Below are positions 36,947 through 64,000 of a stretch of DNA of 64,000 bases, one piece after another; positions within the stretch are counted from its first letter, which is position 1, and each line of letters opens with the position of its first letter. The notes beneath the pieces were generated by a model. The model was not told the DNA's origin. It did no database searches and saw nothing but the letters and a program-made list of their open reading frames with translations. The DNA is taken from positions 1-64,000 of IMG/VR virus record IMGVR_UViG_3300047558_000077, one strand, 5' to 3'. The position numbers and the translations under genes were made by a program. The DNA comes from a virus.

Positions 36947-36967
36947 AATCAAAGACTTAGGAAGGGG

Positions 36968-36996
36968 TTGACAAGACCCCTTCCTTGTGCTATAAT
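36968..36996 (+). promoter_or_regulatory. Sigma70-type promoter for AAA+ gene
   Basis: TTGACA (36968-36973), a 17-base spacer, TATAAT (36991-36996); a second TATAAT follows at 37002. GTGAAAGGA and the ATG at 37033 come next. The in-frame ATG at 36985 lies inside the promoter and is not used. Confidence 0.88.
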
Positions 36997-37032
36997 CCTT
37001 ATATAATGAGAAATGTGAAAGGAAAATCTCAT

Positions 37033-48894: not shown

Positions 48895-49619
48895 ATAAAG
48901 CTCTAATCATTACTCCCACAGGTCGTTCAATCTATCACCACGAAGATTATGACAAAGACAATCACTGGCGCTTTACAAAGCCAGAGAGAACATATGAAAC
49001 ATGTGTGGTGGTCTATAATGACTTTCAGCCAGAGCCAGGAACATATGACTATATCATTCGTCGTAAAGGTCTAAAGTGGAATCTCGTTCCTGAGGTTTCT
49101 AAGATTATCAACTGGCAGGACTACGACTACATTGGTGTGTGGGATGATGACTATGCTACAGATATTCAATCTATCAATAAGGCTCTTGCATATGCTCGGC
49201 GCTATGACTTTAGATTGTTTCAACAAGCAACAACCTCATTTCAAACTTACGATTGTCTAAAGCACAATCCAGAGTTTGCTTTCACGGAAACAAACTTTAT
49301 TGAGTTAGGTGTTCCATTCTTTCGTAATGATATCTATCGCAAAGTTCTTCGCTTTCTTGAGGACTACCGTTATGAGAAGTCTGATTGGGGAATTGATAAA
49401 GTTCTTTGTTACTATCTACAGGCATCGGCTCATGTTGTCCATGATACAACAGTTAGACACATGCTTCCAGATGAAAGCACCTATAATAAAGAAGATGGCT
49501 TTAGAGAAATGGAATATCTAATGCGTGACTTCTTTCCCAAGTATATGAAAGAGAACTTTGGATTAGAATATCAGTATACAGATGTTCAACAAGTGATAAG
49601 GGCTTATAAACATGGATAA
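48891..49619 (+). CDS. DUF707-like putative glycosyltransferase
   Basis: A 242-residue protein starting within the preceding stop (ATGA). CVVVYNDF, then YIGVWDDDYATDIQSINKAL (an acid-rich DDD site) and FTETNFIELGVPFFRNDIYRKVL recall DUF707 proteins, which have a GT-like fold. Catalysis is not proven. It lies within the glycan cassette. Confidence 0.6.
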   Translation: MNKALIITPTGRSIYHHEDYDKDNHWRFTKPERTYETCVVVYNDFQPEPGTYDYIIRRKGLKWNLVPEVSKIINWQDYDYIGVWDDDYATDIQSINKALAYARRYDFRLFQQATTSFQTYDCLKHNPEFAFTETNFIELGVPFFRNDIYRKVLRFLEDYRYEKSDWGIDKVLCYYLQASAHVVHDTTVRHMLPDESTYNKEDGFREMEYLMRDFFPKYMKENFGLEYQYTDVQQVIRAYKHG

Positions 49620-50412
49620 TATGACAAGATACATCAACTGGATGGAAGTATCAGATCAGTTTAGAAAAAGTCTTCCTTTCAATCACGTTATCATTGATGA
49701 CTTTTTTCTACCGCATATTGCAGAACAGTTAGCTAACGAGTTTCCTGATTATAATGATCCGGCTCTTGGCTATTACAATAATGCCATCGAGAACAAGAAG
49801 GTCTTTAACAAGTGGGATAAGTTTCCGAAGTTAACATATCAGGCATTTACTATGCTTGGTCGTCCTAATTTTTTGTTTCATATTAGAGGTCTTATCGGCA
49901 ATCCTAACAACACCGAACTATGGATGGACTATGGATTGAATGGTGGTGGTTGGCACATGCACACCAAAGGCGGTAAGAACAATGTGCATCTTGACTACAA
50001 CATTCATCCTAAGTTAGGTGAACAACGCAAACTAAACATCATCGTATACATGACTCCTAACTGGAAGTCGGAATGGGAAGGTGGTCTAGAACTATGGTCA
50101 CATGATAATGTAACTCGTAGGCCAAAGGATCTGGTTAAGACAGTTGAAAACAAATTCAATCGTGCTGTTATTTTCGATACTACACAGAATAGCTGGCATG
50201 GATTGCCTAAAGAACTAAAGTGTCCTGATGGTGTTGTTCGTAAGTCTCTTGCTGCTTATTACGTTCAACCTGCACCAGAAGGTGCTGATCCTCGTGGCAA
50301 GGCTCTATTTGCTCCTACAAAGGAACAAGAAGGTAATCCAGAAATCGAACAACTTATCCGTGAACGCTCGAATGTGGCAACTGCCGATAAGTTCCATGCA
50401 GGTGACAAGTAA
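49612..50412 (+). CDS. 2OG-Fe(II) dioxygenase, prolyl 4-hydroxylase-like
   Basis: A 266-residue enzyme with all expected ligands: H126 and D128 in NNVHLDYN, H196 in NSWHGLP for iron, and R210 in VVRKSLAAYY for 2-oxoglutarate. The strand WEGGLELWSHDN is also characteristic. The role could be hydroxylation of a sugar, lipid or protein. It is flanked by glycan genes, so a glycan or glycoprotein substrate is likely. Confidence 0.85.
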   Translation: MDNMTRYINWMEVSDQFRKSLPFNHVIIDDFFLPHIAEQLANEFPDYNDPALGYYNNAIENKKVFNKWDKFPKLTYQAFTMLGRPNFLFHIRGLIGNPNNTELWMDYGLNGGGWHMHTKGGKNNVHLDYNIHPKLGEQRKLNIIVYMTPNWKSEWEGGLELWSHDNVTRRPKDLVKTVENKFNRAVIFDTTQNSWHGLPKELKCPDGVVRKSLAAYYVQPAPEGADPRGKALFAPTKEQEGNPEIEQLIRERSNVATADKFHAGDK

Positions 50413-51122
50413 TGGAAGAAATAGATGTAGTATTCTTTATCAATAGTGCTATGAATGTCACTGGTCGTTCCCTCTACTCTAACGATGTTAGATGGGAACA
50501 GACACAGGAAACGATTTTATCTATTGACAAACAGGTACCAAATAATATAAAATACTTAATTGATGGTTCATTCCTACCAATTGAGGAATACAAACTTAAT
50601 TGGTTGAAAGACCATAATGTTCGTGTAGCTCTAACTGGTCATATTCCAGGTATTACAGAGATATCAAAGAACATCGCACAGTATGGTATTGGTAATAGTA
50701 TTGCAGAGACTCGTTCAATGTTCATGTTTGTGGATCACTTTCTACAGTCTGAATATGGAAACATCAAAGCAAAGCGTATATGTAAGTTATCTGGTAGGTA
50801 CAAGATAAATGAAAACTTCAAGTGGGATGATCCTAACTTTGAAAATAAGTATGTCTTCGTGAAGCATCATGCGTCAAATAGTCCTGTGAAAGAACAACTT
50901 GGTCTAACTGGATTGTTTGTCGTGCGTTGCTGGCATATGGATTATGCTCTACTACATAACTACAGAGAAGTCATTCTTAGCATCGCTAACGATTGTGCCA
51001 ATCTCGGTATCGATGCAGAGAACTCTTATTATAAAAACATTCCTAAAGATTTACTTTATGAAGTGGAAAAGATTGGCGTAGAAGGTTATGTCTCACCCGT
51101 GGGAGTCTATGAAAATGAGTAA
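50412..51122 (+). CDS. Hypothetical glycan-cassette protein
   Basis: A 236-residue protein coupled to the oxygenase gene (TAATG). It starts with a Rossmann-like strand (IDVVFFINSAMNVTGRSLYS) and contains KRICKLSGRYKINENFKWDDPNF, which resembles the acceptor region of some glycosyltransferases. No family was recognised with confidence. Confidence 0.5.
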   Translation: MEEIDVVFFINSAMNVTGRSLYSNDVRWEQTQETILSIDKQVPNNIKYLIDGSFLPIEEYKLNWLKDHNVRVALTGHIPGITEISKNIAQYGIGNSIAETRSMFMFVDHFLQSEYGNIKAKRICKLSGRYKINENFKWDDPNFENKYVFVKHHASNSPVKEQLGLTGLFVVRCWHMDYALLHNYREVILSIANDCANLGIDAENSYYKNIPKDLLYEVEKIGVEGYVSPVGVYENE

Positions 51123-52161
51123 AACACTATTGATTACAGGTGGTGCTGGGTTTATCGGTCACCACGTTATTGACTTGTTCCTACAGAAAACTGATTGGAA
51201 CATTGTCTCACTAGATCGCCTAGATTACTCTGGCAATCTAAATCGTCTTGATGATGTTGTGCGGCGCTATCCTGTGGAAACTCGTAAGCGTGTCAAGGTT
51301 GTATATGGTGATCTTCGTGCAGAAGTCACAGCATTACAGCAAAACTTTATTGGTGATGTTGATTACATACTTCACATGGCTGCGTCGTCACACGTTGACC
51401 GCTCTATTGAAGATCCAATGTCATTCGTTATGGACAATGTTGTTGGTACAGTCAACATTCTAAACTTTGCCCGCAAGTGTAAGAACCTCAAGCGGTTCAT
51501 CTATTTCAGCACAGATGAAGTTTTCGGTCCTGCACCAGGTACTATTACATATGGCGAGCGTGATCGCTATAACTCAACTAATCCTTATTCAGCATCTAAG
51601 GCGGCTGGTGAAGAAATGTGTGTTTCCTTCGAGAACACATACAAGCTACCTATCTTCATTACACATACAATGAACGTCTTTGGACAGCGACAGCATCCAG
51701 AGAAGTATATTCCTATGTGTATTCGTAAAGTTCGTAATGAAGAGACTGTTACTATTCATTCCGATCCTTCTAAGACTACACCTGGTTCACGCTTCTATAT
51801 TCATGCCGCTGACGTTGCTGATGCCATGTATTTTCTATTGCATCTAACACCAGAGCAAGAAGCAAAAGTTCATGAGCCTGATTATGGTGGTGCCAAGTGT
51901 CCAAAGTTCAATGTAGTTGGTAAAGAAGAAATCAACAATCTTGAACTTGCAGAGTATATTGCACAAGCAGAAGGTAAGATTCTAAACTTTGAAATGGTTG
52001 ACTTCCATTCTTCACGTCCAGGTCATGATCTTCGATATGGTCTATCGGGTGAGTATATGAAGTCTCTTGGTTGGGAACCAAAGTATACTCTTCGTGATCG
52101 TATCAAGGAAGTAGTTGATTGGTCGCTTGCTAACCCAGAATGGATCGAGGTGACAGAATGA
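51115..52161 (+). CDS. dTDP-glucose 4,6-dehydratase-like enzyme
   Basis: A 348-residue extended SDR enzyme. NAD-binding GGAGFIGHHV, the STDEVFG motif with Thr-Asp-Glu (characteristic of 4,6-dehydratases, where Asp/Glu act in dehydration), and YSASKAAGEEM with the catalytic Tyr and Lys are all present. It would make a 4-keto-6-deoxy sugar nucleotide. ATG at 51115 fits the overlap with the preceding gene. Confidence 0.87.
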   Translation: MSKTLLITGGAGFIGHHVIDLFLQKTDWNIVSLDRLDYSGNLNRLDDVVRRYPVETRKRVKVVYGDLRAEVTALQQNFIGDVDYILHMAASSHVDRSIEDPMSFVMDNVVGTVNILNFARKCKNLKRFIYFSTDEVFGPAPGTITYGERDRYNSTNPYSASKAAGEEMCVSFENTYKLPIFITHTMNVFGQRQHPEKYIPMCIRKVRNEETVTIHSDPSKTTPGSRFYIHAADVADAMYFLLHLTPEQEAKVHEPDYGGAKCPKFNVVGKEEINNLELAEYIAQAEGKILNFEMVDFHSSRPGHDLRYGLSGEYMKSLGWEPKYTLRDRIKEVVDWSLANPEWIEVTE

Positions 52162-52724
52162 GTGTAACATATAACTTTTACGAGCCACTGAAAGACCCAC
52201 AATGGATATCAGGAAAAGATATTCTTCCTCTACTAGCAGACTTTAAGAATCCTGTTGGTATTGAAATTGGTGTTGATGAGGCACCAACAAGTTGGTTCTT
52301 TCTAAAGAATAGACCAGACCTGAAACTATTCGGTGTTGATCCGTTTCAGGCATATCAAGATTGGTATCCTGAAGGTTATATCAGTCAGCGTCAACAGGAT
52401 GAAAAGTATGAGAACATGCGTCGTCGTACCGCAGAGTTTGGTGATCGATGGAAACATTATCGTTTAACTTCTGATGATGCTGTTCCTCTATTTACAGATG
52501 ATTCATTCGACTTTATCTTTATTGACGGTCTGCATGAGTATGAACAGGTCCTAAAGGACTGTAAGAACTATTGGCCTAAGATCAAGAAGGGTGGTGTATT
52601 CGCAGGGCATGACTATCGTGTTATTGAAGGTGTCGGTCGTGCTGTTGATGAATTTGCTGCTACAGTAGGCGCAACGCCTATTCATCTACCAGAACAAGAT
52701 GCTTGGTACTGGATAAAGGAGTAA
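52158..52724 (+). CDS. Class I SAM methyltransferase (Methyltransf_24-like)
   Basis: A 188-residue enzyme. Motif I is PVGIEIGVDEAPTSWFFL, then LFGVDPF, and the FDFIFIDGLHEYEQVLKDCKNYWPKIKKGGVFAGHDY block is the family signature. Such enzymes O-methylate sugars or other small groups. It overlaps the dehydratase stop by four bases. Confidence 0.85.
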   Translation: MSVTYNFYEPLKDPQWISGKDILPLLADFKNPVGIEIGVDEAPTSWFFLKNRPDLKLFGVDPFQAYQDWYPEGYISQRQQDEKYENMRRRTAEFGDRWKHYRLTSDDAVPLFTDDSFDFIFIDGLHEYEQVLKDCKNYWPKIKKGGVFAGHDYRVIEGVGRAVDEFAATVGATPIHLPEQDAWYWIKE

Positions 52725-52727
52725 ACT

Positions 52728-53948
52728 ATGGATTGGGAATGTCGTCCGATTACAGAATGTATTGCATGTGGTTCAAGCGATTTGGTTCCTGTGTTGGATC
52801 TCAATTCTCAACCATTAGCAAACTCATATAAGAAAGATAAACTAGAACAACAACCAGAGTATCCTCTAGCAATCAATCGCTGTAAACATTGTTATCATGT
52901 TCAACTAACGCATCAAGTAAATCCAAAACTAATGTTCACGGATTATGCTTATGTGTCAGGTACAGCTAAAACGTCGCTAGACTATTTTGATTGGCTAGTT
53001 GATCAAATAGTAAGAAAATACGGCTCTACACCAGAGTCAGTTCTAGATATCGGATGCAATGACGGTAGCTTTCTAAACGCATGGGGTGGCACGGGCACCG
53101 TTACGTTTGGTGTTGATCCTGCTGAAAACTTGCATCCGATATCTTCTAAACATCATCGTGTTCATTGTGGCTTCTTTACAGGTAAAGAGTTTGGTGACAA
53201 AAGATTTGACGTTATTACATGTCTAAATGCATTCGCTCACAACGCAGATCAGTTATCATTACTAAAGAATGTGGCGACACGTATGCATGAAGATACGTTA
53301 TTGTTTTGTTCCGTGTCTCAGGCTAATATGATATTAAATGGTGAGTTTGATACAATCTATCATGAGCACCTATCATTCTATAACATCAAATCTGCAAGAG
53401 CCTTGTGTAAACGAGCAGGGCTAAATTTGATTGATGTTATCAAGCACAGCATTCATGGTGATAGTTATATCTTTGTTATCTCGAAAGTGAAAGAAGCAAA
53501 AGTCTATATCGAGTCATTGATTCTAGAAGAAGAGAAGATGGGTCTTTATGATCCTGAAACCTATGATGAGTATGCTGAAAAGTGTTATTTCATTGCGGAT
53601 AAGTTTGCAGAAACGATCAGAGGTTATCGTGCATTAGGTGTCACTGTTATTGGTTACGGTGCTCCTGCCAAGGGCAATACACTAATGAACTTTGCTAATG
53701 AAGGTCCAGACTTTATTGTTGATGATAATCCTTTAAAGCAACTCACATTTACTCCTGGTATGTCTGTGCCAATCTATTCACCTTCATACATGACGCTAAA
53801 CTATTTTGAAACGAAACGTGTTTGCTTTGTTCCGCTTGCTTGGAACTTCTATGATGAAATTGTTGCTAACATAAGAAAGATTAGACCAGCACATACACAT
53901 AAGGATATCTTCGTGCGTTACTTCCCAAAGTTTGAAATCAATGAATAG
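52728..53948 (+). CDS. Sugar C-methyltransferase-like protein
   Basis: A 406-residue three-domain enzyme. The N-terminal zinc domain has C11 and C14 (CIACGSSDLVPVLDLNSQPLAN) and a second CKHCYHVQLTH pair. The SAM domain has VLDIGCNDGSFLNAW, and the C-terminal domain has VIGYGAPAKGNTLMNF. This matches NDP-hexose C-methyltransferases (TylC3 type), which act on 4-keto-6-deoxy sugars, the product of the enzyme two genes upstream. Confidence 0.87.
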   Translation: MDWECRPITECIACGSSDLVPVLDLNSQPLANSYKKDKLEQQPEYPLAINRCKHCYHVQLTHQVNPKLMFTDYAYVSGTAKTSLDYFDWLVDQIVRKYGSTPESVLDIGCNDGSFLNAWGGTGTVTFGVDPAENLHPISSKHHRVHCGFFTGKEFGDKRFDVITCLNAFAHNADQLSLLKNVATRMHEDTLLFCSVSQANMILNGEFDTIYHEHLSFYNIKSARALCKRAGLNLIDVIKHSIHGDSYIFVISKVKEAKVYIESLILEEEKMGLYDPETYDEYAEKCYFIADKFAETIRGYRALGVTVIGYGAPAKGNTLMNFANEGPDFIVDDNPLKQLTFTPGMSVPIYSPSYMTLNYFETKRVCFVPLAWNFYDEIVANIRKIRPAHTHKDIFVRYFPKFEINE

Positions 53949-54726
53949 AGTTGCCTACTATCACATTCATCTAACAGATGATCCTCTAATCTGGACTTCT
54001 ATCTTTCTTGAACAAATGAAATGTATAGAGGATTCTGGATTGATTCAGAATCTAAATAAGATGCGAGTTACTTGCATTGCACAGGATGATGACCGCATCC
54101 AGATGTTTGTTCGTCTATGCGAATCCTATAACATTCCTATGGAACTAACAGCGATCAAGAACCCATTTGACAATGATCGTGACATGCTCTATAATAGAAA
54201 CACTAATAAGTCATGCACGGAAGACATTACGTTAAAGCGTATATGGGAAGATTGTAAAAAGGAAGATATGAAAGTTCTTTACTTTCATTCTAAAGGTTCT
54301 ACATCATATTCCACTAATGTCAATGTCAATAACATCGTCAAACATAAGGAATACTTTTACTGGCGTTCCTTTATGAATTGGGCTGTGTTGGAGCAATGGG
54401 CTTTTTGTGAGAACGCATTGGATAGATATGATATTGCTGGTGGTGACTATCATGAATTACCTTCCCCACATTTTTGCGGTAACTTCTGGTGGGCAACTTC
54501 GGATCATATCAAGCAATTGCCAGACCCACTAGATAAAGCATGGTGGCATGAATTACAAAAGAGGACAGATGATGCTTGGATCAAACAAGCACCAGTTAGA
54601 ATGTATGATGAAATGTGGATCGGTGCTAGAGAAGGTATCAAAGTATATAACGTGATTGATCTAAAGGGTAAGAACCCAGTCAATCAATGTTTATCTGAAT
54701 TAGACTGTGAGAGGCTTATGCAATGA
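53941..54726 (+). CDS. Glycosyltransferase-like hypothetical protein
   Basis: A 261-residue protein. It has VLYFHSKGST and a HFCGNFWWATSDHIKQLPDP segment, seen in uncharacterised phage and bacterial glycan proteins with a GT-A outline. The donor site is not clear. It is coupled to its neighbours by overlaps. Confidence 0.55.
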   Translation: MNRVAYYHIHLTDDPLIWTSIFLEQMKCIEDSGLIQNLNKMRVTCIAQDDDRIQMFVRLCESYNIPMELTAIKNPFDNDRDMLYNRNTNKSCTEDITLKRIWEDCKKEDMKVLYFHSKGSTSYSTNVNVNNIVKHKEYFYWRSFMNWAVLEQWAFCENALDRYDIAGGDYHELPSPHFCGNFWWATSDHIKQLPDPLDKAWWHELQKRTDDAWIKQAPVRMYDEMWIGAREGIKVYNVIDLKGKNPVNQCLSELDCERLMQ

Positions 54727-55964
54727 AAGTAACAGTGATTGGTGCGGGAGGTCATGTTGGTCTTCCGTTTTCTCTTGTGGTAGCAGATGCGGGACATATC
54801 GTATATGGTGTTGACCTGAATGAAGAACTTATTCTAGCACTGAATAGTGGTATTGTGCCTTATATTGAACATGGCGCAGAAGAACTACTAGTAAAGCACA
54901 CATCAGAAGGTAACATCGTTTTCACTACCAACGCATCTATGATAAATGAATCAGATGTTGTTGCCATCATGCTTGGCACACCTGTTGACGAAGAGAACAA
55001 TCCACGACTAGATGATTTGTTTGACTTTGTTGATCATACTCTTATGCCTAATATGAAGAAAGATACGTTGGTGCTGTTAAGGTCAACAGTATCACCAGGC
55101 ACAACAGAAATACTTCGTGATCGTATTGAATCGATAACTGGATGGATAGAAGGTAAAGATTTTTATCTGGTGTTTGTTCCTGAAAGAGTTCTACAGACAA
55201 AAGGTATTGAAGAGACAGCAAATCTACCAGCATTGATTGGAGCATTTGGAGATAACTCATATTATAAGGCTAGAGAGTTTCTAGGAACATTCATCAAGGC
55301 ACCTATGTTTCTTCTAACACCAAGAGAAGCGGAGATCGGTAAACTTATGACGAATATGTTTCGTTATGTTACCTTTGCTCTTGCTAATGAGTTTTGGATG
55401 ATTGGAGAAAAGCAAGGTGTGGATATGCACCGTGTCATCCAAGCAGCAAATTATGGTTATGAAAGAAATGCTATTCCTCTACCAGGTCCTAATGTCGGCG
55501 GTCCATGTCTATTCAAAGATGGTAGATTTCTTCTATCAGACATACCGTTTGCTGATCTTATTCAGACCTCGTTCCATATCAATGAAGGTATGCCAGACTA
55601 CATCTTCAATCGCATCAAGGAGATGAATCCTAAGGTAAGATGTGTTTTGATTCTTGGTGCGACCTTCAAGAAGGACTGTGACGATACACGAAACAGTCTA
55701 TCATTCAAAATGAAGAAGGTATGTAAGAAGAATGGTGCCGAGGTGTATATGTGGGATGACTATATTCCGTGGCCAAAGGACAAGGATTTTCCATACAGAG
55801 AACATTTTGATGCTGTTATTGTAATGACACCTCATACAGGCACAGAAGCAAAGTGGCCGCTAAATGATTTCAATGATGATTGTATCATCGCAGATATCTG
55901 GAAGATGTATCCAGAAAGTAAACTAAGTAAGTCAGGCATTTATAGAGTTGGAGATATGTTGTAA
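54723..55964 (+). CDS. UDP-glucose/UDP-ManNAc-type dehydrogenase
   Basis: A 413-residue enzyme. NAD site GAGGHVGLPFSLVVADAG, the central RSTVSPGTTE and FVPERVLQ segments, and the catalytic Cys C262 in GGPCLFKD are present, as is the C-terminal NAD-sugar binding part (GATFKKDCDDTRNS). It oxidises a UDP-sugar to the uronic acid. The sequence resembles the WecC branch more than Ugd. Confidence 0.87.
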   Translation: MKVTVIGAGGHVGLPFSLVVADAGHIVYGVDLNEELILALNSGIVPYIEHGAEELLVKHTSEGNIVFTTNASMINESDVVAIMLGTPVDEENNPRLDDLFDFVDHTLMPNMKKDTLVLLRSTVSPGTTEILRDRIESITGWIEGKDFYLVFVPERVLQTKGIEETANLPALIGAFGDNSYYKAREFLGTFIKAPMFLLTPREAEIGKLMTNMFRYVTFALANEFWMIGEKQGVDMHRVIQAANYGYERNAIPLPGPNVGGPCLFKDGRFLLSDIPFADLIQTSFHINEGMPDYIFNRIKEMNPKVRCVLILGATFKKDCDDTRNSLSFKMKKVCKKNGAEVYMWDDYIPWPKDKDFPYREHFDAVIVMTPHTGTEAKWPLNDFNDDCIIADIWKMYPESKLSKSGIYRVGDML

Positions 55965-55976
55965 GGATCGGATTTA

Positions 55977-56027
55977 CTAAATAGTATTGTCCGTCACGGA
56001 GTTGGCGCTCCCACGGACTCTAATACT
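55977..56027 (+). promoter_or_regulatory. Late promoter overlapped by a long hairpin
   Basis: CTAAATA (55977-55983). AGTATTGTCCGT (55983-55994) pairs with ACGGAC (56013-56018) and, past a TCT bulge, AATACT (56022-56027); an inner GGAG/CTCC stem is closed by a 6-base loop. The 5' arm begins at the promoter's last base, so only read-through transcripts would carry the full stem. Confidence 0.65.
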
Positions 56028-56044
56028 GTTTAGGAGTATCAGCA

Positions 56045-56668
56045 ATGTTCTATATTTATGCCTATCTCAGGCAAGACAACACACCATATTATATCGGTAA
56101 AGGAAAAGGTCGTAGGGCTTGGACTAAGTATAAGGGAGAAGTGTATCCTCCTAAAGACAAAACTCGTGTGGTCATTATGGAAGATAATCTAACAGAACTT
56201 GGCGCTTTGGCTTTAGAAAGAAGATATATTCGTTGGTATGGACGTAAAGATAATGGCACAGGTATATTGAGAAATATGACAGATGGTGGTGACGGAACAA
56301 CAGGTATCATCAGAGACGAGGAATGGAGTAGAAAGCAAAGAGAGTCACAACCTAAAAAATTTGGTTTAGATAATCCATTCTATAACAAGCAGCACAATGT
56401 AGAAACAAAAAAGATAATGAGTATCAAAAAACAGGGTGAAAATCATCCTATGTTTGGAAAGAAACAAAGTAATACTACAATAGAAAGAAAAGTAAAGAAA
56501 CTATCAAAGAAGTGGATGATAACATTTCCAGATGGTCATAGTGAGATTATAAAGAACATAAAAGAGTTTTGTAGAGATAAAGATTTTGGTCCGAGCCAAC
56601 TATATAATGTCGCTTATGGAAATCAAAAATCTTGTCACGGATATAAATGTCAGAAAATGGAGAACTGA
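56045..56668 (+). CDS. GIY-YIG homing endonuclease
   Basis: A 207-residue nuclease. The catalytic domain has [23 protein letters not shown] (GIY-YIG core as YAY...YYIGKG), with a later Glu in [17 protein letters not shown]3-type repeats follow ([30 protein letters not shown]), then a [13 protein letters not shown] hairpin. It is inserted between two sugar-nucleotide genes and ends one base before the next start. Its leader carries a late promoter and hairpin. Confidence 0.92.
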
Positions 56669-56669
56669 A

Positions 56670-57659
56670 ATGCGTGTATTGGTCACTGGAAGTGAAGGAT
56701 CGTTGGGACAGGCTGTCATACCACTATTATTGAAAAAAGGTTATGTTGTGACCGGCGTAGATAATCTTGCCAGATACGGTGAAAGATTCGGTTTAGCAGG
56801 TAATGATTATACGTTTATCAAGTGCGATCTAACTGACGGACTTAGTGTCCAGAGATTGATGGATCAGGTAAAACCGGATTATATTCTACAAATGGCTGCC
56901 ACTATTTACGGGGTTTCAGGGTTCAATAAGTATTGCGGTGAGATGTATAAGGACATTGCCCTACACGATAATGTCCTTCGTGCTGCTGCTAATCATAATG
57001 TTGAAAAGGTAATCTACATTTCATCTTCTATGGTGTATGAGAACTGCCCACAAGACATTGCTTATCCGGTTCCTGAGGATATTGTTGATAGTAATCCAGC
57101 ACCTTATACAGACTATGGTCTATCAAAGTTTGTCGGTGAGCGTGTATCTAAGGCATATCTAAAGCAGTATGGTCTAAAGTATACTATCTGGCGTCCATTC
57201 AACATCATTACACCATATGAAAGAAGTGAGTCCGAAGAAGTTGGTATCTCACATGTCTTTGCCGACTACATCAAGAATATCGTTATTGAAAAGAAGAAGC
57301 CACTACCTATTCTAGGTGATGGTTATCAGATTCGGTGCTTCACATGGATTGATGAAGTTGCTGCGGCTATTGCTGACTATTCATTTGATACTAAGACCGA
57401 CAATCAGATTTACAATCTCGGTAATGCTGAACCAATCTCTATGCGTGTTCTAGCAGAGAAGATCAAAGACATTGCCTCTAAAGAATATAATCTGATTGAA
57501 GATTACTTCCTTCTATATGAGACTATCGGTGATTATCAGAACGATGTTCGTGTCCGTATTCCAGATTGTGAAAAAGCCAAGAATGAACTTGGTTGGGAAG
57601 CACGAATGAAAGTTGATGACTCTATTCGTATGTGTCTCAAGTATGTTGCGGAGAAATAA
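56670..57659 (+). CDS. NAD-dependent sugar epimerase/dehydratase
   Basis: A 329-residue extended SDR enzyme. NAD site VTGSEGSLGQAV, ISSSMVYENCP, and the catalytic YTDYGLSKFVGE with Tyr and Lys are intact. The ATG at 56670 follows AATGGAGAA. The exact sugar is unclear, but the set of neighbours suggests an epimerase in deoxysugar or uronic acid synthesis. Confidence 0.85.
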   Translation: MRVLVTGSEGSLGQAVIPLLLKKGYVVTGVDNLARYGERFGLAGNDYTFIKCDLTDGLSVQRLMDQVKPDYILQMAATIYGVSGFNKYCGEMYKDIALHDNVLRAAANHNVEKVIYISSSMVYENCPQDIAYPVPEDIVDSNPAPYTDYGLSKFVGERVSKAYLKQYGLKYTIWRPFNIITPYERSESEEVGISHVFADYIKNIVIEKKKPLPILGDGYQIRCFTWIDEVAAAIADYSFDTKTDNQIYNLGNAEPISMRVLAEKIKDIASKEYNLIEDYFLLYETIGDYQNDVRVRIPDCEKAKNELGWEARMKVDDSIRMCLKYVAEK

Positions 57660-58606
57660 TGACAACATTCATCGTAACAGGTTGTAATGGATATATTGGC
57701 AGTCATATGTGCCATGAACTTGGTGCGTTATACAATGATTGTCATATCATAGGTATTGATAGAGTTGAGAAGAAGCATCTCAAGCATTTGTATGACGAGT
57801 TTATTCAGGTAGACTTGGCTCTTGACCCTATTGTATTATCAAATGGAAAGAAACGGCACATAGATGCCGTTTTTCATTTTGCTGCCGAGATATCAGTAGA
57901 AGAAGGCGAGTCGGATCCATGGAAGTATTACTTTAACAATGTGGTCGGTTCGCTTCGTATGATGAAAGAAGCAAAGCAGTATGGTATCAAAAACTTTATC
58001 TTTTCATCTACTGCGGCTGTCTACGGTAAATCAGAAAGTTCTGCGTTCGGACATTTGTTTGAAACAAGTCCAGTCAATCCTTATTCTGTATATGGTAAGA
58101 GTAAGGCGATGGTTGAAAATGTTCTGCTAGATGAAAAAGAAATGAACTGTGCCATTCTTCGGTACTTCAATGTTGCCGGTAGAAGTCAGAAAGCCAATCT
58201 ATACGAAGAACATGATCCAGAAACACATTTGATTCCTCTTCTTGTCAGAGGAGAAAATCCTGTGATCTACGGAACAGATTATCAGACAAGAGACGGAACT
58301 TGTGTTAGAGATTTTATTGACGTTAGAGACGTATGCCGTGCCCATACATTGGCTTATCGTTATATGAATGAAAAGAATGAAAGTCTCCTTCTAAATGTAG
58401 GAAGCGGTAGAGGATATACAGTCAAAGAAGTTGTTGACAAAGTGAATGAAATCATTCATAATGGTGAAATGAAAGTTACTTTTGAGGAACGGAGACCAGG
58501 TGATGTTTCCTATCTGGTTGCGGATACAACCAAGATAAAAGAGACACTGGATTTTCAGCCACAGTATTCTCTGGACAATATCATAGAAAGTATGAAGAAT
58601 GTATAA
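57659..58606 (+). CDS. galE: UDP-glucose 4-epimerase-like enzyme
   Basis: A 315-residue SDR enzyme. TGCNGYIGSHM binds NAD, FSSTAAVYG holds the catalytic Ser/Thr, NPYSVYGKSKAMVE the Tyr-Lys pair, and RYFNVAG and RDGTCVRDFIDVRDV are GalE signatures. It is expected to convert UDP-glucose and UDP-galactose. It closes the glycan cassette and is coupled (TAATG) to the previous gene. Confidence 0.88.
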   Translation: MTTFIVTGCNGYIGSHMCHELGALYNDCHIIGIDRVEKKHLKHLYDEFIQVDLALDPIVLSNGKKRHIDAVFHFAAEISVEEGESDPWKYYFNNVVGSLRMMKEAKQYGIKNFIFSSTAAVYGKSESSAFGHLFETSPVNPYSVYGKSKAMVENVLLDEKEMNCAILRYFNVAGRSQKANLYEEHDPETHLIPLLVRGENPVIYGTDYQTRDGTCVRDFIDVRDVCRAHTLAYRYMNEKNESLLLNVGSGRGYTVKEVVDKVNEIIHNGEMKVTFEERRPGDVSYLVADTTKIKETLDFQPQYSLDNIIESMKNV

Positions 58607-58793
58607 GAGAGACAAATGGGAGAAAGTGAGAAATCTGATTACAGCGGATATTTCTCATGCCGTTCATTATTCGTGCGATAAACTATACGAACATAACGTG
58701 GCGCTTCGGTATCTCCAATACATGGAAGCACTAGAGATAGAAGAAAACTGGCACAATGAATATATTAGATACATGGAAAAGGGTCTAGAATGA
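58599..58793 (+). CDS. Small hypothetical protein
   Basis: A 64-residue helical protein overlapping galE by eight bases (YSCDKLYEHNVALRYLQYMEALEIEENWHNEY). No family was recognised. Confidence 0.5.
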   Translation: MYKRDKWEKVRNLITADISHAVHYSCDKLYEHNVALRYLQYMEALEIEENWHNEYIRYMEKGLE

Positions 58794-58993
58794 AACTTAT
58801 GAGAGTCTTAGACAAAACATTTAAGATTAATAAATCAATGCGACCCGAAATGATTTTAACAGTAGCATTTCCTTTGGAATATGCCAAAGATGAATCAGAA
58901 GTTATTTCTGGTGAAGAGTTTTTAAAACAGTTTAATGAAGCAATGGCAGAATACGAAAGAGAGAATGAAAATGAAGTATCATTCACCGATTGA
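58790..58993 (+). CDS. Small hypothetical protein
   Basis: A 67-residue protein overlapping the previous stop by four bases and the acyl-CoA dehydrogenase start by 23 bases. Acidic C-terminus (FNEAMAEYERENENEVSF). No family was recognised. Confidence 0.5.
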   Translation: MKLMRVLDKTFKINKSMRPEMILTVAFPLEYAKDESEVISGEEFLKQFNEAMAEYERENENEVSFTD

Positions 58994-60683
58994 TTCAACA
59001 CTATTTCTTCTCCGTGATGTTCTAGGTTTTGACAATGAACTAACGGAGCCGATTCTTACTGAGGCGGCCAAGTTGTGTGAAGAAGAAATCGCACCGACTA
59101 ATCAGATTGGTGATAAGGAAGGTTGTGTTAGAGTTCCTAAAGTAACCATTTTAAACGAAGATAAAACGATTAAAGAAACTCGTGAATCTTTCGTAAGAGT
59201 TCCAGAATGTTTCAAAGAACCATACAAAAAGTTTGCCGAAGGAGGTTGGCTTGGTCTATCAGTTCCTGAAGAGTATGGTGGACAAGGCCTACCATATACA
59301 CTTGCGGCTGCGGTCAACGAGTTTGTATCCTCGTCTAACATGGCTTTTAGTATGTTTCCTGGCCTTACTCGTGGAGCTATCCAAGCACTCTTAGCATCTG
59401 GTAATGATTTCCAGAAGCATGAGTATATACCTAGATTAGTATCTGGTGAATGGACTGGAACAATGTGTCTTACTGAACCACATTGCGGTACCGACCTTGG
59501 ACTGCTAAAGACAAAAGCGGTGCATGATTATGACGACTGGTATAAGATTACAGGTCAGAAAATCTTTATCTCTGGTGGTGACCACGATCTAACAGATAAT
59601 ATTCTTCATCTTGTTCTAGCAAGAGTTGAAGGTGATTCAGAAGGCGTCAAAGGTATTAGTCTGTTTGCTGTACCTAAAAATCTAGGAGAAAATAATAATG
59701 TCTCTTGCGGTTCTATTGAAGAAAAGATGGGCATTCATGGTTCACCAACATGCGTTATGAACTTTGATGGTGCTTATGGTATTCTAATCGGTGAACGCTG
59801 TAAGGGTCTCCAAGCAATGTTCGTTATGATGAACGAAGCAAGACTAGGTGTTGCTGTTCAAGGACTATCACAATCGGAGTTGGCTTATCAAAATGCTTTG
59901 GAATATGCTAAAGAAAGACTTCAAGGGACTAAACTTTCGAATCGATTGGGGGAGACTACTACTCGGAATCCGTGTAGTATTATACATCACCCTGACGTTC
60001 GCCGTATGCTACTTGATGTTAGGTCTATCAATGAGGCTGCTAGGCTTCTAATACTAGAAGCGGCGATGTTGGTTGATAAAGCCGACGAAGAATCACAAGA
60101 TCGCCTTGGTCTAATGACTCCTGTTCTAAAGGGTGTATTGACAGACTATGGTTTTGAAAATGCTGTAAAGATGCAACAGGTTTGGGGTGGCCATGGATAT
60201 GTTCGTGACAATGGTATGGAACAAATCGTAAGAGACGCCAGAATTGCCATGATCTATGAAGGTGCTAATGGTATTCAGGCACTTGATCTTGTTGGCCGTA
60301 AGTTGCCTAAGAACATGGGTCGTGCTATTACTAAGTTCTTCAAGGATAGTGAAAGTTTCTTGTCGGGTGCATATGATAAAGATATCAATCCAATCGTGCA
60401 GCCAATGACAAGAGCATTGAATGAACTAAAACAAGCAACAGAATGGTTGATGCATAATGCTATCAAGAATCCAAACAATGCTGGTTCGGCATCTTATGAT
60501 TATATGAAGATGATGGGACTTGTTATGCTTGGTATGGCACACATCAAGATTTGTCTAAAGACAAATGACAAGACACGCCATGACAATGCTACATATTTCA
60601 TGGAGCGTATTGTACCAGAGACAAGTTTTCTGTTGAAGCGTATCAAAGAAGGTTCTGATACTATGATGAAAGCGGAGTTTTGA
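58971..60683 (+). CDS. Acyl-CoA dehydrogenase
   Basis: A full 570-residue flavoenzyme of the large acyl-CoA dehydrogenase type (FadE/DmdC-like length). The N-terminal helical domain ends in GWLGLSVPEEYGGQGLPYTL. The FAD/substrate motif is MCLTEPHCGTDLGLLKT, followed by ITGQKIFISGG. The C-terminal domain has WGGHGYVRDNGMEQIVRDARIAMIYEGANGIQALDLVGRKL with the catalytic base E430. All expected residues appear intact, so activity is plausible. It would oxidise an acyl-CoA to the 2-enoyl form and pass electrons to ETF. The substrate is unknown. Such a gene is unusual in a phage. Confidence 0.93.
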   Translation: MKYHSPIDSTLFLLRDVLGFDNELTEPILTEAAKLCEEEIAPTNQIGDKEGCVRVPKVTILNEDKTIKETRESFVRVPECFKEPYKKFAEGGWLGLSVPEEYGGQGLPYTLAAAVNEFVSSSNMAFSMFPGLTRGAIQALLASGNDFQKHEYIPRLVSGEWTGTMCLTEPHCGTDLGLLKTKAVHDYDDWYKITGQKIFISGGDHDLTDNILHLVLARVEGDSEGVKGISLFAVPKNLGENNNVSCGSIEEKMGIHGSPTCVMNFDGAYGILIGERCKGLQAMFVMMNEARLGVAVQGLSQSELAYQNALEYAKERLQGTKLSNRLGETTTRNPCSIIHHPDVRRMLLDVRSINEAARLLILEAAMLVDKADEESQDRLGLMTPVLKGVLTDYGFENAVKMQQVWGGHGYVRDNGMEQIVRDARIAMIYEGANGIQALDLVGRKLPKNMGRAITKFFKDSESFLSGAYDKDINPIVQPMTRALNELKQATEWLMHNAIKNPNNAGSASYDYMKMMGLVMLGMAHIKICLKTNDKTRHDNATYFMERIVPETSFLLKRIKEGSDTMMKAEF

Positions 60684-60684
60684 T

Positions 60685-60858
60685 ATGTTTAAGAATGAAA
60701 AACTAAACAAGATTTGTGATGCTGTATCTAAGGATGATCCACAGAATAAGATGACGACTATGTTTCTTTTGAAACTCGTGGAAAATTTGATTGAGGCCAG
60801 AGATGATGGTGAGCGTCTAAGACTTGCTCATGATATAATAAATGTGATGTCTGAATGA
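60685..60858 (+). CDS. Small hypothetical protein
   Basis: A 57-residue helical protein (MTTMFLLKLVENLIEARDDGERLRLAHDIINV) starting one base after the dehydrogenase stop. No family was recognised. Confidence 0.5.
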   Translation: MFKNEKLNKICDAVSKDDPQNKMTTMFLLKLVENLIEARDDGERLRLAHDIINVMSE

Positions 60859-60870
60859 TAGGAGCAAACA

Positions 60871-61080
60871 TTGATTGAACTGTTTAAAGAGCAATTAGAC
60901 GGAAGTCCCAATATAACAAAAGTTTGCTATGCGGTTCGCCAACTAAAGCCACATTCGTTAGAAATTCATTTTTGTAAATTAAATGAAATAGAAAAAATAT
61001 GCGAACAGTATGAAAATTGGAAAGTAACTTACGATATTCTTGGAAGTATTCCAATTTTCAACGAGGTAATAATGGAATGA
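60871..61080 (+). CDS. Small hypothetical protein
   Basis: A 69-residue protein with a TTG start five bases after AGGAG. Mixed alpha/beta character with two cysteines. It overlaps the next gene by four bases (ATGA). Confidence 0.5.
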   Translation: MIELFKEQLDGSPNITKVCYAVRQLKPHSLEIHFCKLNEIEKICEQYENWKVTYDILGSIPIFNEVIME

Positions 61081-61283
61081 TTTTTGATTACAAAGAAGAT
61101 ACCTGTAAGTATGTTGTCCATTCCAAGAAGAACGGAAACGAGTTTGCTATTTCGTTTATCTCCATGGATCAAGTTGCTGAATATGTAGAGACGGAAGAAA
61201 ATGTAACTGGTGTTTGGAAAGTAACAGCACAGAAGATTCCACCAGAAGTTTATAAGAGAAGAGTGAAAGATGTGGTTCAGTAA
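61077..61283 (+). CDS. Small hypothetical protein
   Basis: A 68-residue protein. Strand-rich N-terminus (KYVVHSKKNGNEFAISFISMDQVAEYVE), basic C-terminus. It overlaps both neighbours, indicating coupling. Confidence 0.5.
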   Translation: MIFDYKEDTCKYVVHSKKNGNEFAISFISMDQVAEYVETEENVTGVWKVTAQKIPPEVYKRRVKDVVQ

Positions 61284-61422
61284 TCATCATAACGGTATCA
61301 TCGTTCGCCGTAGATACAACTATAAACATCTAAGGCCATATGATACGTGTCTTTGTAGCACATGGTCGAGACACATTAGAACAGTCAATAAGAAAATGAG
61401 GAAAAAGTATGAGAATACATGA
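61270..61422 (+). CDS. Very short basic protein, paralogue pair member 1
   Basis: A 50-residue Arg/Tyr/His-rich frame (IIVRRRYNYKHLRPYD). It shares the VRRR, KH and RPY order with the next frame, suggesting duplication. Overlaps at both ends support expression. Confidence 0.4.
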   Translation: MWFSNHHNGIIVRRRYNYKHLRPYDTCLCSTWSRHIRTVNKKMRKKYENT

Positions 61423-61549
61423 CTGTAAATACAACGTTCGTCGTAGACCTAAACATTTTAAGGAAAGGCCATATAATAATTTTGCCCAAGCGCCTTGGTC
61501 ATGGTTTATTACATGTGTCAATTTGACAAAGAGAAAAAAGTATGTATGA
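61409..61549 (+). CDS. Very short basic protein, paralogue pair member 2
   Basis: A 46-residue frame (YNVRRRPKHFKERPYNNF, then PWSWF) paralogous to the preceding one. It ends within the start codon region of the exported protein at 61546. Confidence 0.4.
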   Translation: MRIHDCKYNVRRRPKHFKERPYNNFAQAPWSWFITCVNLTKRKKYV

Positions 61550-61782
61550 TGAAATATTTGATGATAATCTCAATGGTGGTATTCCCCACGGTTACTAATG
61601 CTCAACTAGCAATGACCACGGACAATCATTCTTTGACACAATCTACTGCCAATCCTCCGTTGAGATCGCCAGCGTATTCTTGGCAGCCAAATACAAGTGA
61701 TGGTGCCACACAGGGTTGGCAGTCAACTGTTCCGACTGGTGGTGCCAGAGGAATCGTAACAGAATGGGAAGAAGTTGAGTGA
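61546..61782 (+). CDS. Small exported protein upstream of pmoC
   Basis: A 78-residue protein starting at tandem ATG codons. A signal peptide (KYLMIISMVVFPTVTNAQ, cleavage likely after TNA) leads to a mature part of about 55 residues with Ser, Thr, Gly and Trp (AYSWQPNTSDGATQGWQSTVP) and an acidic end. No cysteine is present. It is the nearest gene to pmoC, but the two have separate signals, so a shared role is only a suggestion. Confidence 0.5.
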   Translation: MMKYLMIISMVVFPTVTNAQLAMTTDNHSLTQSTANPPLRSPAYSWQPNTSDGATQGWQSTVPTGGARGIVTEWEEVE

Positions 61783-61850
61783 CGAAAAATGAACGCAGAT
61801 TGTCTAGAAATGAATGTCTTTCAGACGAGTTTTGTGTCATTATAGCGACA

Positions 61851-61907
61851 AGTAGTCAATGGTGACTACTAAATAAAAGACCGGGCATCCTATCCCGGAG
61901 ACCGGTC
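61851..61907 (+). promoter_or_regulatory. pmoC late promoter and structured leader
   Basis: An 8-base perfect inverted repeat (61851-61858 with 61863-61870) runs into CTAAATA (61869-61875). Next comes CCGGG (61881-61885) with CCCGG (61894-61898), and an alternative pairing of GACCGG (61879-61884) with CCGGTC (61902-61907), so two leader folds compete. A ribosome site (TAGGAG) and the pmoC ATG at 61931 follow. It has the same build as the leaders of gp18 and gp20. Confidence 0.75.
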
Positions 61908-61930
61908 AATCACAAAATAGGAGTGAATAT

Positions 61931-62704
61931 ATGAGCGTTGTAAAACAAACGGCAACTGCCGTGGCCACCGACGTTGATACACAGGTCGTTGACCTACGAG
62001 GCATGTGGATTGGGCTCGCCCTTCTAAATGTCTTTTATCTAATCGTCCGTATCTATGAACAGGTTTATGGCTGGCGTGCTGGTCTTGACTCGTTCGCACC
62101 AGAGTTTCAGACATATTGGATGTCTATTCTTTGGACAGAAATCCCACTAGAACTTATCTCAGGTCTTGGTCTTGCAGGTTATCTTTGGAAGACTAGAACC
62201 CGTGACTTCTCTCTTGTAACACCAAGGGAAGAAATGCGCCGTCTAGCGGTGTTGGTTCAGTGGTTGGTTGTTTATGCTGTTGCTATCTACTGGGGTGCAT
62301 CGTTCTTCACCGAACAGGATGGTACCTGGCATATGACAGTCATTCGTGATACGGATTTCACTCCGTCCCACATCATTGAGTTCTACATGAGTTACCCAAT
62401 CTACTCAATCATTGCTGTTGGTGCGTTCTTCTATGCTCGCACTCGTATCCCTTACTTTGCTCAGGGATATAGCCTAGCATTCTTGATTGTTGCTATTGGA
62501 CCATTCATGATCATCCCGAACGTTGGCCTGAATGAGTGGGGCCACACCTTCTGGTTCATGGAAGAACTATTCGTTGCTCCTCTACATTGGGGCTTCGTGT
62601 TCTTCGGCTGGATGGCTCTAGGTGTCTTTGGCGTTGTGCTACAGATCCTAGGTCGTGTCCACAGTCTCGTTGGACGAGATGGTGTAAGACTCCTTACCGA
62701 ATAA
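61931..62704 (+). CDS. pmoC: Particulate methane monooxygenase subunit C
   Basis: A 257-residue membrane protein with about six hydrophobic segments, the usual length for alphaproteobacterial PmoC. Metal ligands known from Methylococcus PmoC (Asp156, His160, His173, and Asn227, His231, His245) map here with a constant offset of 26 to D130, H134 and H147 (EQDGTWH, TPSHIIEF) and to N201, H205 and H219 (LNEWGH, APLHWGF). Both copper sites are thus intact. In hosts PmoC works with PmoA and PmoB in intracytoplasmic membranes to oxidise methane to methanol. The phage gene stands alone, without pmoA or pmoB in the window, so the product would have to join host subunits. Its GC content is higher than that of nearby small genes and similar to that of gp23. 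Confidence 0.96.
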   Translation: MSVVKQTATAVATDVDTQVVDLRGMWIGLALLNVFYLIVRIYEQVYGWRAGLDSFAPEFQTYWMSILWTEIPLELISGLGLAGYLWKTRTRDFSLVTPREEMRRLAVLVQWLVVYAVAIYWGASFFTEQDGTWHMTVIRDTDFTPSHIIEFYMSYPIYSIIAVGAFFYARTRIPYFAQGYSLAFLIVAIGPFMIIPNVGLNEWGHTFWFMEELFVAPLHWGFVFFGWMALGVFGVVLQILGRVHSLVGRDGVRLLTE

Positions 62705-62714
62705 ATGTCAACAG

Positions 62715-62741
62715 GGGTGCGACGCAATGTCGCACCCTTTT
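62715..62741 (+). terminator. Rho-independent terminator after pmoC
   Basis: GGGTGCGAC pairs perfectly with GTCGCACCC around a GCAAT loop, followed by TTTT, 10 bases after the pmoC stop. It closes a single-gene unit. Confidence 0.92.
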
Positions 62742-62744
62742 CTA

Positions 62745-62773
62745 TTGACAACGGCAATATCCATTGATATAAT
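62745..62773 (+). promoter_or_regulatory. Sigma70-type promoter
   Basis: TTGACA (62745-62750), a 17-base spacer, TATAAT (62768-62773), right after the pmoC terminator. It drives the small genes that follow. Confidence 0.88.
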
Positions 62774-62796
62774 GCAAAGACACTGGAGATTCCAAT

Positions 62797-63207
62797 ATGC
62801 CGTTGCTTCCCGCTTATTATACCACGACTAATCTTCGGAAGCGCAAGTCTAAAAAGACTAATACTTCCGAACATACTAAGTGGCTAGAGTCCATGGGTCT
62901 TACGCCCAAGCAGATAAAAAGTAAAAAGTCAAAGAATACTTCCTGGAAGTCTGACTATACTGCCTCTTTGCATGTCGACCGTTCCACAAAACATTACGAA
63001 AAATCTATTCAAGAGGTGTGTAACGCACCTGCTAATGCCACGGCTAATCGTTCCGTGATGGCTAATCTACATAAAGAGAACGAAGAAACTCGCAAGGCTA
63101 TTCTTGATAAAGCCAAGCGGGTCATGCCACTTTACAATAAGGGTGGACTCCAGGTTCTCTCTGAGTCTGATGATCTCAAAGCACTCAACAAAACTGTGAG
63201 GGTATAA
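62797..63207 (+). CDS. Conserved phage hypothetical protein
   Basis: A 136-residue basic protein with a Lys-rich start (LRKRKSKKTNTSEHTKWLESMGLTPKQIKSKK) and a helix near the end (KENEETRKAILDKAKRVMPLYNKGG). This pattern is frequent in aquatic phage genomes without known function. It is the first gene after an early promoter. Confidence 0.6.
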   Translation: MPLLPAYYTTTNLRKRKSKKTNTSEHTKWLESMGLTPKQIKSKKSKNTSWKSDYTASLHVDRSTKHYEKSIQEVCNAPANATANRSVMANLHKENEETRKAILDKAKRVMPLYNKGGLQVLSESDDLKALNKTVRV

Positions 63208-63341
63208 TGGCATTAGAAGAACATGACTATATTGAATGGCATTTCAATATTCGTTATAGAGCCTGGTGGTATTTTCATATTCGCTGGCATGATGATTATG
63301 ATGCATGTGAAATCGAACCTGTAATCTATTGGGGTGCATGA
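63207..63341 (+). CDS. Very short aromatic-rich protein
   Basis: A 44-residue frame, starting in the preceding stop (TAATGG) and overlapping the next ATG. It is unusually rich in Trp, Tyr and His (IEWHFNIRYRAWWYFHIRWHDDY). Confidence 0.45.
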   Translation: MALEEHDYIEWHFNIRYRAWWYFHIRWHDDYDACEIEPVIYWGA

Positions 63342-63607
63342 TGAGCAAGAAAGCAAGACGTAGACCTTCATGGAAAAAGTATATTGGCCCAAGATCGTTT
63401 TATATCGATCTAATCAATGAAGAAACAGGAGAACTATTTGAGAGGGTCATGGTTAAAGATGGCACCTTTCTTCGTGATATGCTAAAGAGAAATGGTCCTG
63501 TTGTTTTAGAAGAAAATCTAAGACAGGCATTTATAGACCTTGCGGAGAGGACACTAAATAATGACAGACAAGTCCAGATTGAAAGCAATAACTCAAAAGA
63601 TGTTTGA
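63341..63607 (+). CDS. Small hypothetical protein
   Basis: An 88-residue basic protein (KKARRRPSWKKYIGPRSFYIDLINEETGELFERVM). Coupled to its neighbour by overlap; an in-frame ATG three bases upstream is an alternative start. No family was recognised. Confidence 0.5.
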   Translation: MSKKARRRPSWKKYIGPRSFYIDLINEETGELFERVMVKDGTFLRDMLKRNGPVVLEENLRQAFIDLAERTLNNDRQVQIESNNSKDV

Positions 63608-63800
63608 AGTGCATGACGAAACTTTTAAGCAGTTAGCAGAAAGCGAACGCAGAGATCGTAAGTTTAGATTGGAGATGGCAAATGAAATCTGGAGAAAAGT
63701 CAAAGGTATTGACATTCCCGAAGACTACTCGGAAGAGGATCGTTTGTCAATATACGAGCGTTACTACCACCGAGCCGTCTCCATGTCCCAAGGAGAGTAG
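63561..63800 (+). CDS. Small helical hypothetical protein
   Basis: A 79-residue charged helical protein (FEVHDETFKQLAESERRDRKFRLEMANEIWRKVKG). It overlaps the previous gene by 47 bases. No family was recognised. Confidence 0.5.
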   Translation: MTDKSRLKAITQKMFEVHDETFKQLAESERRDRKFRLEMANEIWRKVKGIDIPEDYSEEDRLSIYERYYHRAVSMSQGE

Positions 63801-63870
63801 AAGTTATTGGCCCACATTGCTAGGCGCATTCATTGGACTGTTATACATTTCTATTCTATTTGTATTATAA
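63682..63870 (+). CDS. Possible short membrane protein, start unclear
   Basis: The C-terminal 25 residues form a membrane helix (YWPTLLGAFIGLLYISILFVL) reaching a stop at 63870, with AAGGAG at about 63790. The only ATG (63682) lies deep in the overlapping gene, so translation may begin at a later non-ATG codon. Confidence 0.3.
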   Translation: MKSGEKSKVLTFPKTTRKRIVCQYTSVTTTEPSPCPKESRSYWPTLLGAFIGLLYISILFVL

Positions 63871-63879
63871 GGAAGAGTT

Positions 63880-64000
63880 ATGGATCAAGATACTATTGTA
63901 GGCATCCAGAAGATGCGAGAACATAAACCCACAACTGTCTATGATCTTATGGACGAAAGAGATGCCTATAAACAGGCACTGTGGGATATCACAAAAGCAG
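63880..64000 (+). CDS. Partial hypothetical protein, 3' end cut off
   Basis: The frame starts with ATG after GGAAGAG and is open to the window end (40 residues: MDQDTIVGIQKMREHKP, then DLMDERDAYKQALWD). Too short to assign. Confidence 0.5.
   Translation, partial: MDQDTIVGIQKMREHKPTTVYDLMDERDAYKQALWDITKA

What the first reader, a model, noticed from the sequence alone, without database searches (positions are those of the whole stretch)
61931..62704. Virus-encoded PmoC with both copper sites intact
The sequence shows a full PmoC whose six metal ligands (D130, H134, H147; N201, H205, H219) keep exactly the spacing of the host enzyme. Phage pmoC genes are already reported from freshwater metagenomes, so the gene class is known. 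What stands out is that no ligand is lost and that it sits in a T4-like genome with its own late expression signals. It may replace worn PmoC in host methane monooxygenase during infection.
Basis: partly seen in the sequence, partly recalled or inferred. Interest (0 to 1): 0.93.

Follow-up and report, generated by a model that had tools for sequence, protein, structure and literature searches.

The report
Phage copy of methane-oxidation gene pmoC
A T4-like freshwater virus of methane-eating Methylocystis-type bacteria carries an intact, late-expressed copy of one subunit of the methane-oxidising enzyme; such viruses were already described in 2020, so the gene is real and functional-looking but not a new kind of thing.

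Summary
ORF 61931-62704 encodes a full-length PmoC whose six CuC/CuD ligands (D130, H134, H147, N201, H205, H219) are intact. It lies in a 172,364-bp T4-like phage record with no detectable pmoA or pmoB. It falls in an almost purely viral clade nested within Methylocystis/Methylosinus operon PmoC, and evolves under purifying selection (dN/dS about 0.07-0.08). Every window residue absent from host PmoCs lies in the two tails, except Q178.

The emphasis is wrong: all 80 viral PmoCs examined keep all six ligands. pmoC-phages, including a Lake Mendota genome of nearly the same size and GC (LM_3; 172,382 bp, 41%), were published in 2020, with the CuC ligands checked and late-like expression seen in related phages.

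Extras that the papers I read do not report: (i) an Aeh1-type late promoter motif (CTAAATA) directly followed by a stable hairpin whose loop (UCCUAU) is the reverse complement of the pmoC Shine-Dalgarno AUAGGA, conserved in relatives; (ii) a full-length phage acyl-CoA dehydrogenase syntenic with pmoC; (iii) two lineages with a core-deleted pmoC that keep the leader.

Most likely function: late supply of PmoC to host pMMO, keeping methane oxidation running during infection. This is inferred, not shown.

The parts
61931..62704 (+). pmoC, 257 aa, all six CuC/CuD ligands present
61869..61875 (+). CTAAATA late-promoter-like motif (Aeh1 type, -12 to -6); predicted transcript start about 61879-61881
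   Evidence: motif in PMC1524935
61852..61869 (+). Inverted repeat GTAGTC-N6-GACTAC just upstream of the late motif, kept by paired changes in relatives
61879..61907 (+). 5' leader hairpin: GACCGG/CCGGTC long form, or CCGGG-CAUCCUAU-CCCGG short form; would lie at the 5' end of the late transcript
61888..61893 (+). TCCTAT, exact reverse complement of the pmoC Shine-Dalgarno, inside the hairpin loop
61917..61923 (+). Shine-Dalgarno ATAGGAG
62715..62741 (+). Intrinsic-terminator-like hairpin GGGTGCGAC-GCAAT-GTCGCACCC followed by TTTT; makes pmoC a stand-alone transcription unit
58935..60683 (+). Full-length acyl-CoA dehydrogenase, predicted catalytic Glu442 (IYEG) kept; syntenic with pmoC in many relatives
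61546..61782 (+). Small protein with an apparent signal peptide, directly upstream of pmoC in the near relatives; function unknown

Best explanation
A T4-like phage of Methylocystis-type methanotrophs carries a host-derived pmoC that has long been kept in the phage gene pool. It is transcribed as its own unit from a late-type phage promoter. The product most likely inserts into the intracytoplasmic membrane and joins host PmoA/PmoB, so that pMMO keeps turning over while host gene expression is shut off, supplying reductant and carbon for virion production. Shown here: intact gene, host origin, long viral residence, purifying selection, host-like core, late-type signal. Inferred: protein production, assembly with host PmoAB, catalysis, benefit to the phage.
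For: Family and closest structures. All six ligands kept in 80 of 80 viral copies. Nested in Methylocystis/Methylosinus PmoC (SH-aLRT 98), inside a viral clade of 32 viral rows plus the window (SH-aLRT 93). dN/dS 0.07-0.08 against its nearest viral relatives at dS 0.5-1.05. GC3 0.47, between phage (mean 0.34) and host (0.75-0.86), i.e. partly ameliorated. Window residues not seen in hosts are only in the tails plus Q178. No PmoA motif in virus loci or the rest of G000, and no PmoB match there or in the window. Late motif. Published: pmoC of related large phages is among the most expressed genes together with structural genes (PMC7674155).
Against: No expression or biochemical data for this phage; in Lake Rotsee the small-genome pmoC-phages were probably inactive (PMC7674155). 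Relatives have repeatedly lost the catalytic core of pmoC, so the benefit is conditional. T4-type late sigma factor gp55 was not identified. AlphaFold confidence was low around both metal-ligand loops.
Confidence: 0.7

Rival explanations
1. Phage PmoC enters pMMO but serves to change it (for example tail-determined regulation, copper or oxygen affinity, or a stress isoform like host stand-alone PmoC copies) rather than to replace worn subunits.
For: The divergence from hosts sits in the two cytoplasmic tails, and host stand-alone pmoC copies exist (PMC7674155).
Against: The tails also vary freely among hosts and among phages, which fits weak constraint as well as new function.
Confidence: 0.2
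2. pmoC is a passenger: recently captured host DNA with no role for the phage.
For: Catalytic-core deletions in two relative lineages; fragmented copies reported (PMC7674155).
Against: dN/dS 0.07-0.08 at dS up to about 1, all ligands kept in 80 of 80 copies, dedicated promoter, leader and terminator kept across lineages.
Confidence: 0.04
3. Phage PmoC works outside methane oxidation, for instance as a membrane protein that remodels or occupies intracytoplasmic membranes.
For: It is an integral membrane protein of an abundant type; no pmoA/pmoB accompany it.
Against: Both copper sites are invariant in all viral copies, which a purely structural role would not need.
Confidence: 0.05

Closest known systems
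pmoC-phages of Chen et al. 2020 (PMC7674155), especially Lake Mendota LM_1, LM_2, LM_3
   Same: T4-like/cyanophage-related myovirus of 159-527 kb, stand-alone pmoC of alphaproteobacterial type, no pmoA/pmoB, CuC ligands kept, Methylocystis predicted as host. LM_3: 172,382 bp, 41% GC, 21 tRNAs against 172,364 bp, 40.8% GC and 24 tRNAs (ARAGORN) here.
   Different: Sequence identity with LM_3 could not be tested (the searchable phage set holds no PmoC relative). The parts of their main text that I read do not describe the CuD ligands, the leader RNA or the full-length acyl-CoA dehydrogenase next to pmoC; they mention only part of an acyl-CoA dehydrogenase near partial pmoC in LM_8.
PmoC of Methylocystis sp. 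Rockwell pMMO (PDB 4phz, 7s4m)
   Same: Top sequence and fold match; same ligands and near-identical membrane core.
   Different: Tails differ; encoded alone, without pmoA and pmoB.
amoC of thaumarchaeal viruses; psbA of cyanophages
   Same: A single subunit of a key energy enzyme carried by a virus of the organism that depends on it.
   Different: Different host, substrate and phage lineage. Recalled, and amoC cited by Chen et al.; not compared here.

Membership tests
PmoC/AmoC family (copper membrane monooxygenase subunit C) | Full-length profile match | tested here: met
   AmoC E=2.9e-106, profile 4-244/245; TIGR03078 above cut-off
PmoC/AmoC family (copper membrane monooxygenase subunit C) | CuC (D,H,H) and CuD (N,H,H) ligands | tested here: met
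PmoC/AmoC family (copper membrane monooxygenase subunit C) | PmoC fold | tested here: met
   Model TM-score 0.80/0.85 to 7s4m chain C; mean pLDDT only 73, low at the metal loops
Alphaproteobacterial methanotroph PmoC (not AmoC or another clade) | Placement in Methylocystis/Methylosinus PmoC | tested here: met
   SH-aLRT 98 for the smallest starred set holding the window: 33 virus, 21 bacteria, window. NF041641 AmoC_BACT also scores because the families overlap; dedicated PxmC/AmoC outgroups were not assembled
Functional pMMO subunit | Assembles with PmoA/PmoB and supports methane oxidation | not testable with these tools
   Only single chains can be folded; window residues unseen in hosts lie in tails plus 178
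pmoC-phage (Chen 2020 kind) | T4-like phage genome with stand-alone pmoC and no pmoA/pmoB | tested here: met
   The PmoA motif search covered virus loci and the rest of G000; PmoB tblastn also covered the window
Late-expressed T4-type gene | Late promoter motif at the right distance | tested here: met
   CTAAATA 61869-61875; [AC]TAAATA are the commonest 7-mers of intergenic DNA, 27 on the coding strand against 2; Aeh1 late motif in PMC1524935
Late-expressed T4-type gene | Phage late sigma factor gp55 in the genome | tested here: inconclusive
   No Sigma70_r2 match in G000, none in a partial PHROG scan; gp55 is divergent and not all ORFs were scanned
Late-expressed T4-type gene | Transcribed late in infection | not testable with these tools
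   No transcriptome; reported for other pmoC-phages (PMC7674155)

The most novel reading that the evidence does not exclude
Phage pmoC is under translational control by its 5' leader RNA. In the window's clade the loop of a hairpin placed right behind the late promoter (UCCUAU) pairs with the pmoC Shine-Dalgarno (AUAGGA) as a pseudoknot or kissing complex. In a second viral clade a different local hairpin (UUCUC-NNNN-GAGAA) covers part of the Shine-Dalgarno. The phage would thus hold back PmoC until a signal (a protein, a ligand or ribosome state) opens the leader.
Probability: 0.25. Interest if true: 0.6.

Novelty: new member of a known kind. Interest (0 to 1): 0.4.

Why it matters
Methane oxidation in lakes is a major brake on methane release, and phages that carry pmoC could speed it up or end it. 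This member adds what a test needs: a phage clade with a conserved pmoC expression unit (late motif, structured leader, terminator), evidence of long-term purifying selection, and natural core-deletion relatives that are ready-made controls for asking when a phage benefits from PmoC. A second host-derived metabolic gene, an acyl-CoA dehydrogenase, is linked to it in the genome.

Tried and rejected
Introns or homing elements as the cause of broken pmoC in relatives: rejected, because the short copies are clean core deletions with short microhomology at the junctions. Rfam families in the leader: no gathering-level hit in 56000-64000, and only sub-threshold matches with E from 0.9 to 3.1. Leader hairpin as a pmoC-only element: the 'late motif plus hairpin' layout is general in this phage (8 of 18 intergenic CTAAATA sites with z below -2, against 8.7% of random positions), so only the loop/Shine-Dalgarno complementarity is special to pmoC within these phages. 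A global scan for that complementarity gave mostly chance matches and some other phage genes, so it is not a pmoC hallmark everywhere. Whole-window CTAAATA count is not above chance (16 against 12.6); the support comes from strand and intergenic bias only. The phage GenBank set holds no PmoC relative. PHROGs has no family matching the window's PmoC or acyl-CoA dehydrogenase.

Full report
What is there. The ORF at 61931-62704 on the + strand encodes 257 aa and is a full-length PmoC: Pfam AmoC E=2.9e-106, NCBIfam models above cut-off, best solved relatives the PmoC chains of Methylocystis sp. Rockwell and strain M. D130, H134, H147, N201, H205 and H219 are present. An AlphaFold model from a 30-row alignment has mean pLDDT 73 and matches 7s4m chain C with TM 0.80/0.85. 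The two metal-ligand loops (127-141, 196-211) are low-confidence, so the model adds nothing on metal geometry.

Where it lies. The window is the first 64 kb of a 172,364-bp virus record with 40.8% GC and 24 tRNAs. It encodes a terminase large subunit, T4-type tail sheath and major head protein and a family-B DNA polymerase. No PmoA motif is found in the virus loci or the rest of the record, and no PmoB match in those or the window. Chen et al. 2020 (PMC7674155) describe 22 such pmoC-phages; their LM_3 (172,382 bp, 41% GC, 21 tRNAs, alphaproteobacterial pmoC, Methylocystis host) is almost the same by these numbers. I could not compare sequences, so identity is likely but unproven.

Is the ligand conservation special? 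No. All 80 viral PmoCs fetched keep all six ligands, as do nearly all host copies. Chen et al. reported the CuC triad. Adding CuD is a small extension.

Origin and selection. A quick IQ-TREE of 121 distinct PmoCs places the window among viral rows (33-row set, SH-aLRT 93) nested in Methylocystis/Methylosinus PmoC (98). Gammaproteobacterial-type viral PmoCs lie elsewhere, so there were several captures. GC3 of pmoC (0.47) is the highest of the 43 ORFs of at least 200 aa in the window (mean 0.34), but far below hosts (0.75-0.86), i.e. partly ameliorated. Against the nearest viral relatives dS is 0.5-1.05 and dN 0.04-0.07, giving a ratio of 0.07-0.08. Window residues found in no host row are at 4, 5, 9, 13, 17, 18, 178, 245, 249 and 253. 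The core that carries the copper sites is host-like throughout.

Expression signals. CTAAATA at 61869-61875 matches the late promoter motif inferred for the T4-like phage Aeh1, starting at -12 (PMC1524935). In G000, ATAAATA and CTAAATA are the commonest intergenic 7-mers and strongly strand-biased (14:0 and 13:2), although the raw window count is not above chance. The predicted transcript would begin at or next to a hairpin (61879-61907; leader folding z=-3.4). In seven related leaders two helices keep pairing through changes on both sides at three pairs: 95% of cells paired against 12-57% when slid, 0 of 500 shuffles reaching the covariation score. The sample is small and related, so this is moderate support. 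A terminator-like hairpin follows the gene (62715-62741). The same 'late motif then hairpin' layout occurs at other genes of this phage.

A possible translational switch. The hairpin loop holds UCCUAU, the reverse complement of the Shine-Dalgarno AUAGGA. A complement of at least 6 nt to the Shine-Dalgarno region is present in 6 of 7 pmoC leaders of this clade (the seventh, L002, keeps CCUAU), against 0 of 46 other leaders with the same promoter type in these phages. A second viral clade has a different leader (TTGACT-17-TATAAATA, then AAGAGTGG...CCACTTGAT) in which a local hairpin covers part of the Shine-Dalgarno: stem of at least 4 Watson-Crick pairs in 15 of 16 scorable leaders, against 14% of control genes. 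The sequences are related and the test was devised after seeing them, so this is a hypothesis.

Loss of the gene. Of 44 viral contigs with the second-type leader (46 hits less two chance matches, L181 and L183), eight have lost the whole catalytic core while the leader stays: five share a frameshifted 37-aa remnant and three an in-frame 52-aa fusion of the two tails, with different junctions. Chen et al. saw a similar core-less subset in CB_5. PmoC is thus kept under selection in most lineages but dispensable in some.

Neighbours. A complete acyl-CoA dehydrogenase (58935-60683) with four Pfam domains and the predicted catalytic Glu442 lies about 1.25 kb upstream. Full or partial homologues lie near pmoC in more than 20 viral loci. 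The phage proteins form one clade (SH-aLRT 95) beside the Methylocystis-family orthologue. It may draw electrons from acyl-CoA; its substrate is unknown. A small protein with an apparent signal peptide lies directly upstream of pmoC in the near relatives.

How it most likely works. Late in infection the phage makes PmoC that joins host PmoA/PmoB and keeps pMMO active. The gene-level steps are shown; the protein-level steps are inferred. The finding is a sound member of a published kind. The leader RNA, the acyl-CoA dehydrogenase link and the core-deletion relatives are the parts worth following.

Noticed in passing
L165:1940-2300 (genome about 125,940-126,300): A permuted (two-piece) tmRNA gene, tag AANDNVPFDYALAA; Rfam RF04321 95 bits and RF01849 (alphaproteobacterial tmRNA) 56 bits, against about 300 bits for host tmRNAs. 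Fits an alphaproteobacterial host and might rescue or tag stalled translation during infection.
   Followed up: partly
window 58935-60683: Full-length phage acyl-CoA dehydrogenase, a viral clade sister to the Methylocystis-family orthologue; some relatives also carry an extra C-terminal fragment of it.
   Followed up: yes
L187, L188, L196 and L175, L191, L193, L194, L198: Relatives with the pmoC catalytic core deleted at short microhomologies but the leader kept.
   Followed up: partly
window 11228, 39491, 46037, 55977; genome 82834, 85001, 123576: CTAAATA motifs immediately followed by strong hairpins upstream of other phage genes: a genome-wide late-leader layout.
   Followed up: partly
window 45505-46044: HSP20-like gene; in the second viral clade its homologue follows pmoC directly.
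   Followed up: no
L162:6282-7862: Tryptophan-halogenase-like flavoenzyme, phrog_2928 E=2e-145.
   Followed up: no
window 34760-38253: Adjacent genes matching phrog_459 (peptidase; weak cobalamin-biosynthesis hit) and phrog_249 (porphyrin biosynthesis).
   Followed up: no
window 48040-58606: Cluster of sugar-nucleotide and glycan genes: fucosyltransferase, UDP-glucose dehydrogenase, epimerases, C-methyltransferase.
   Followed up: no
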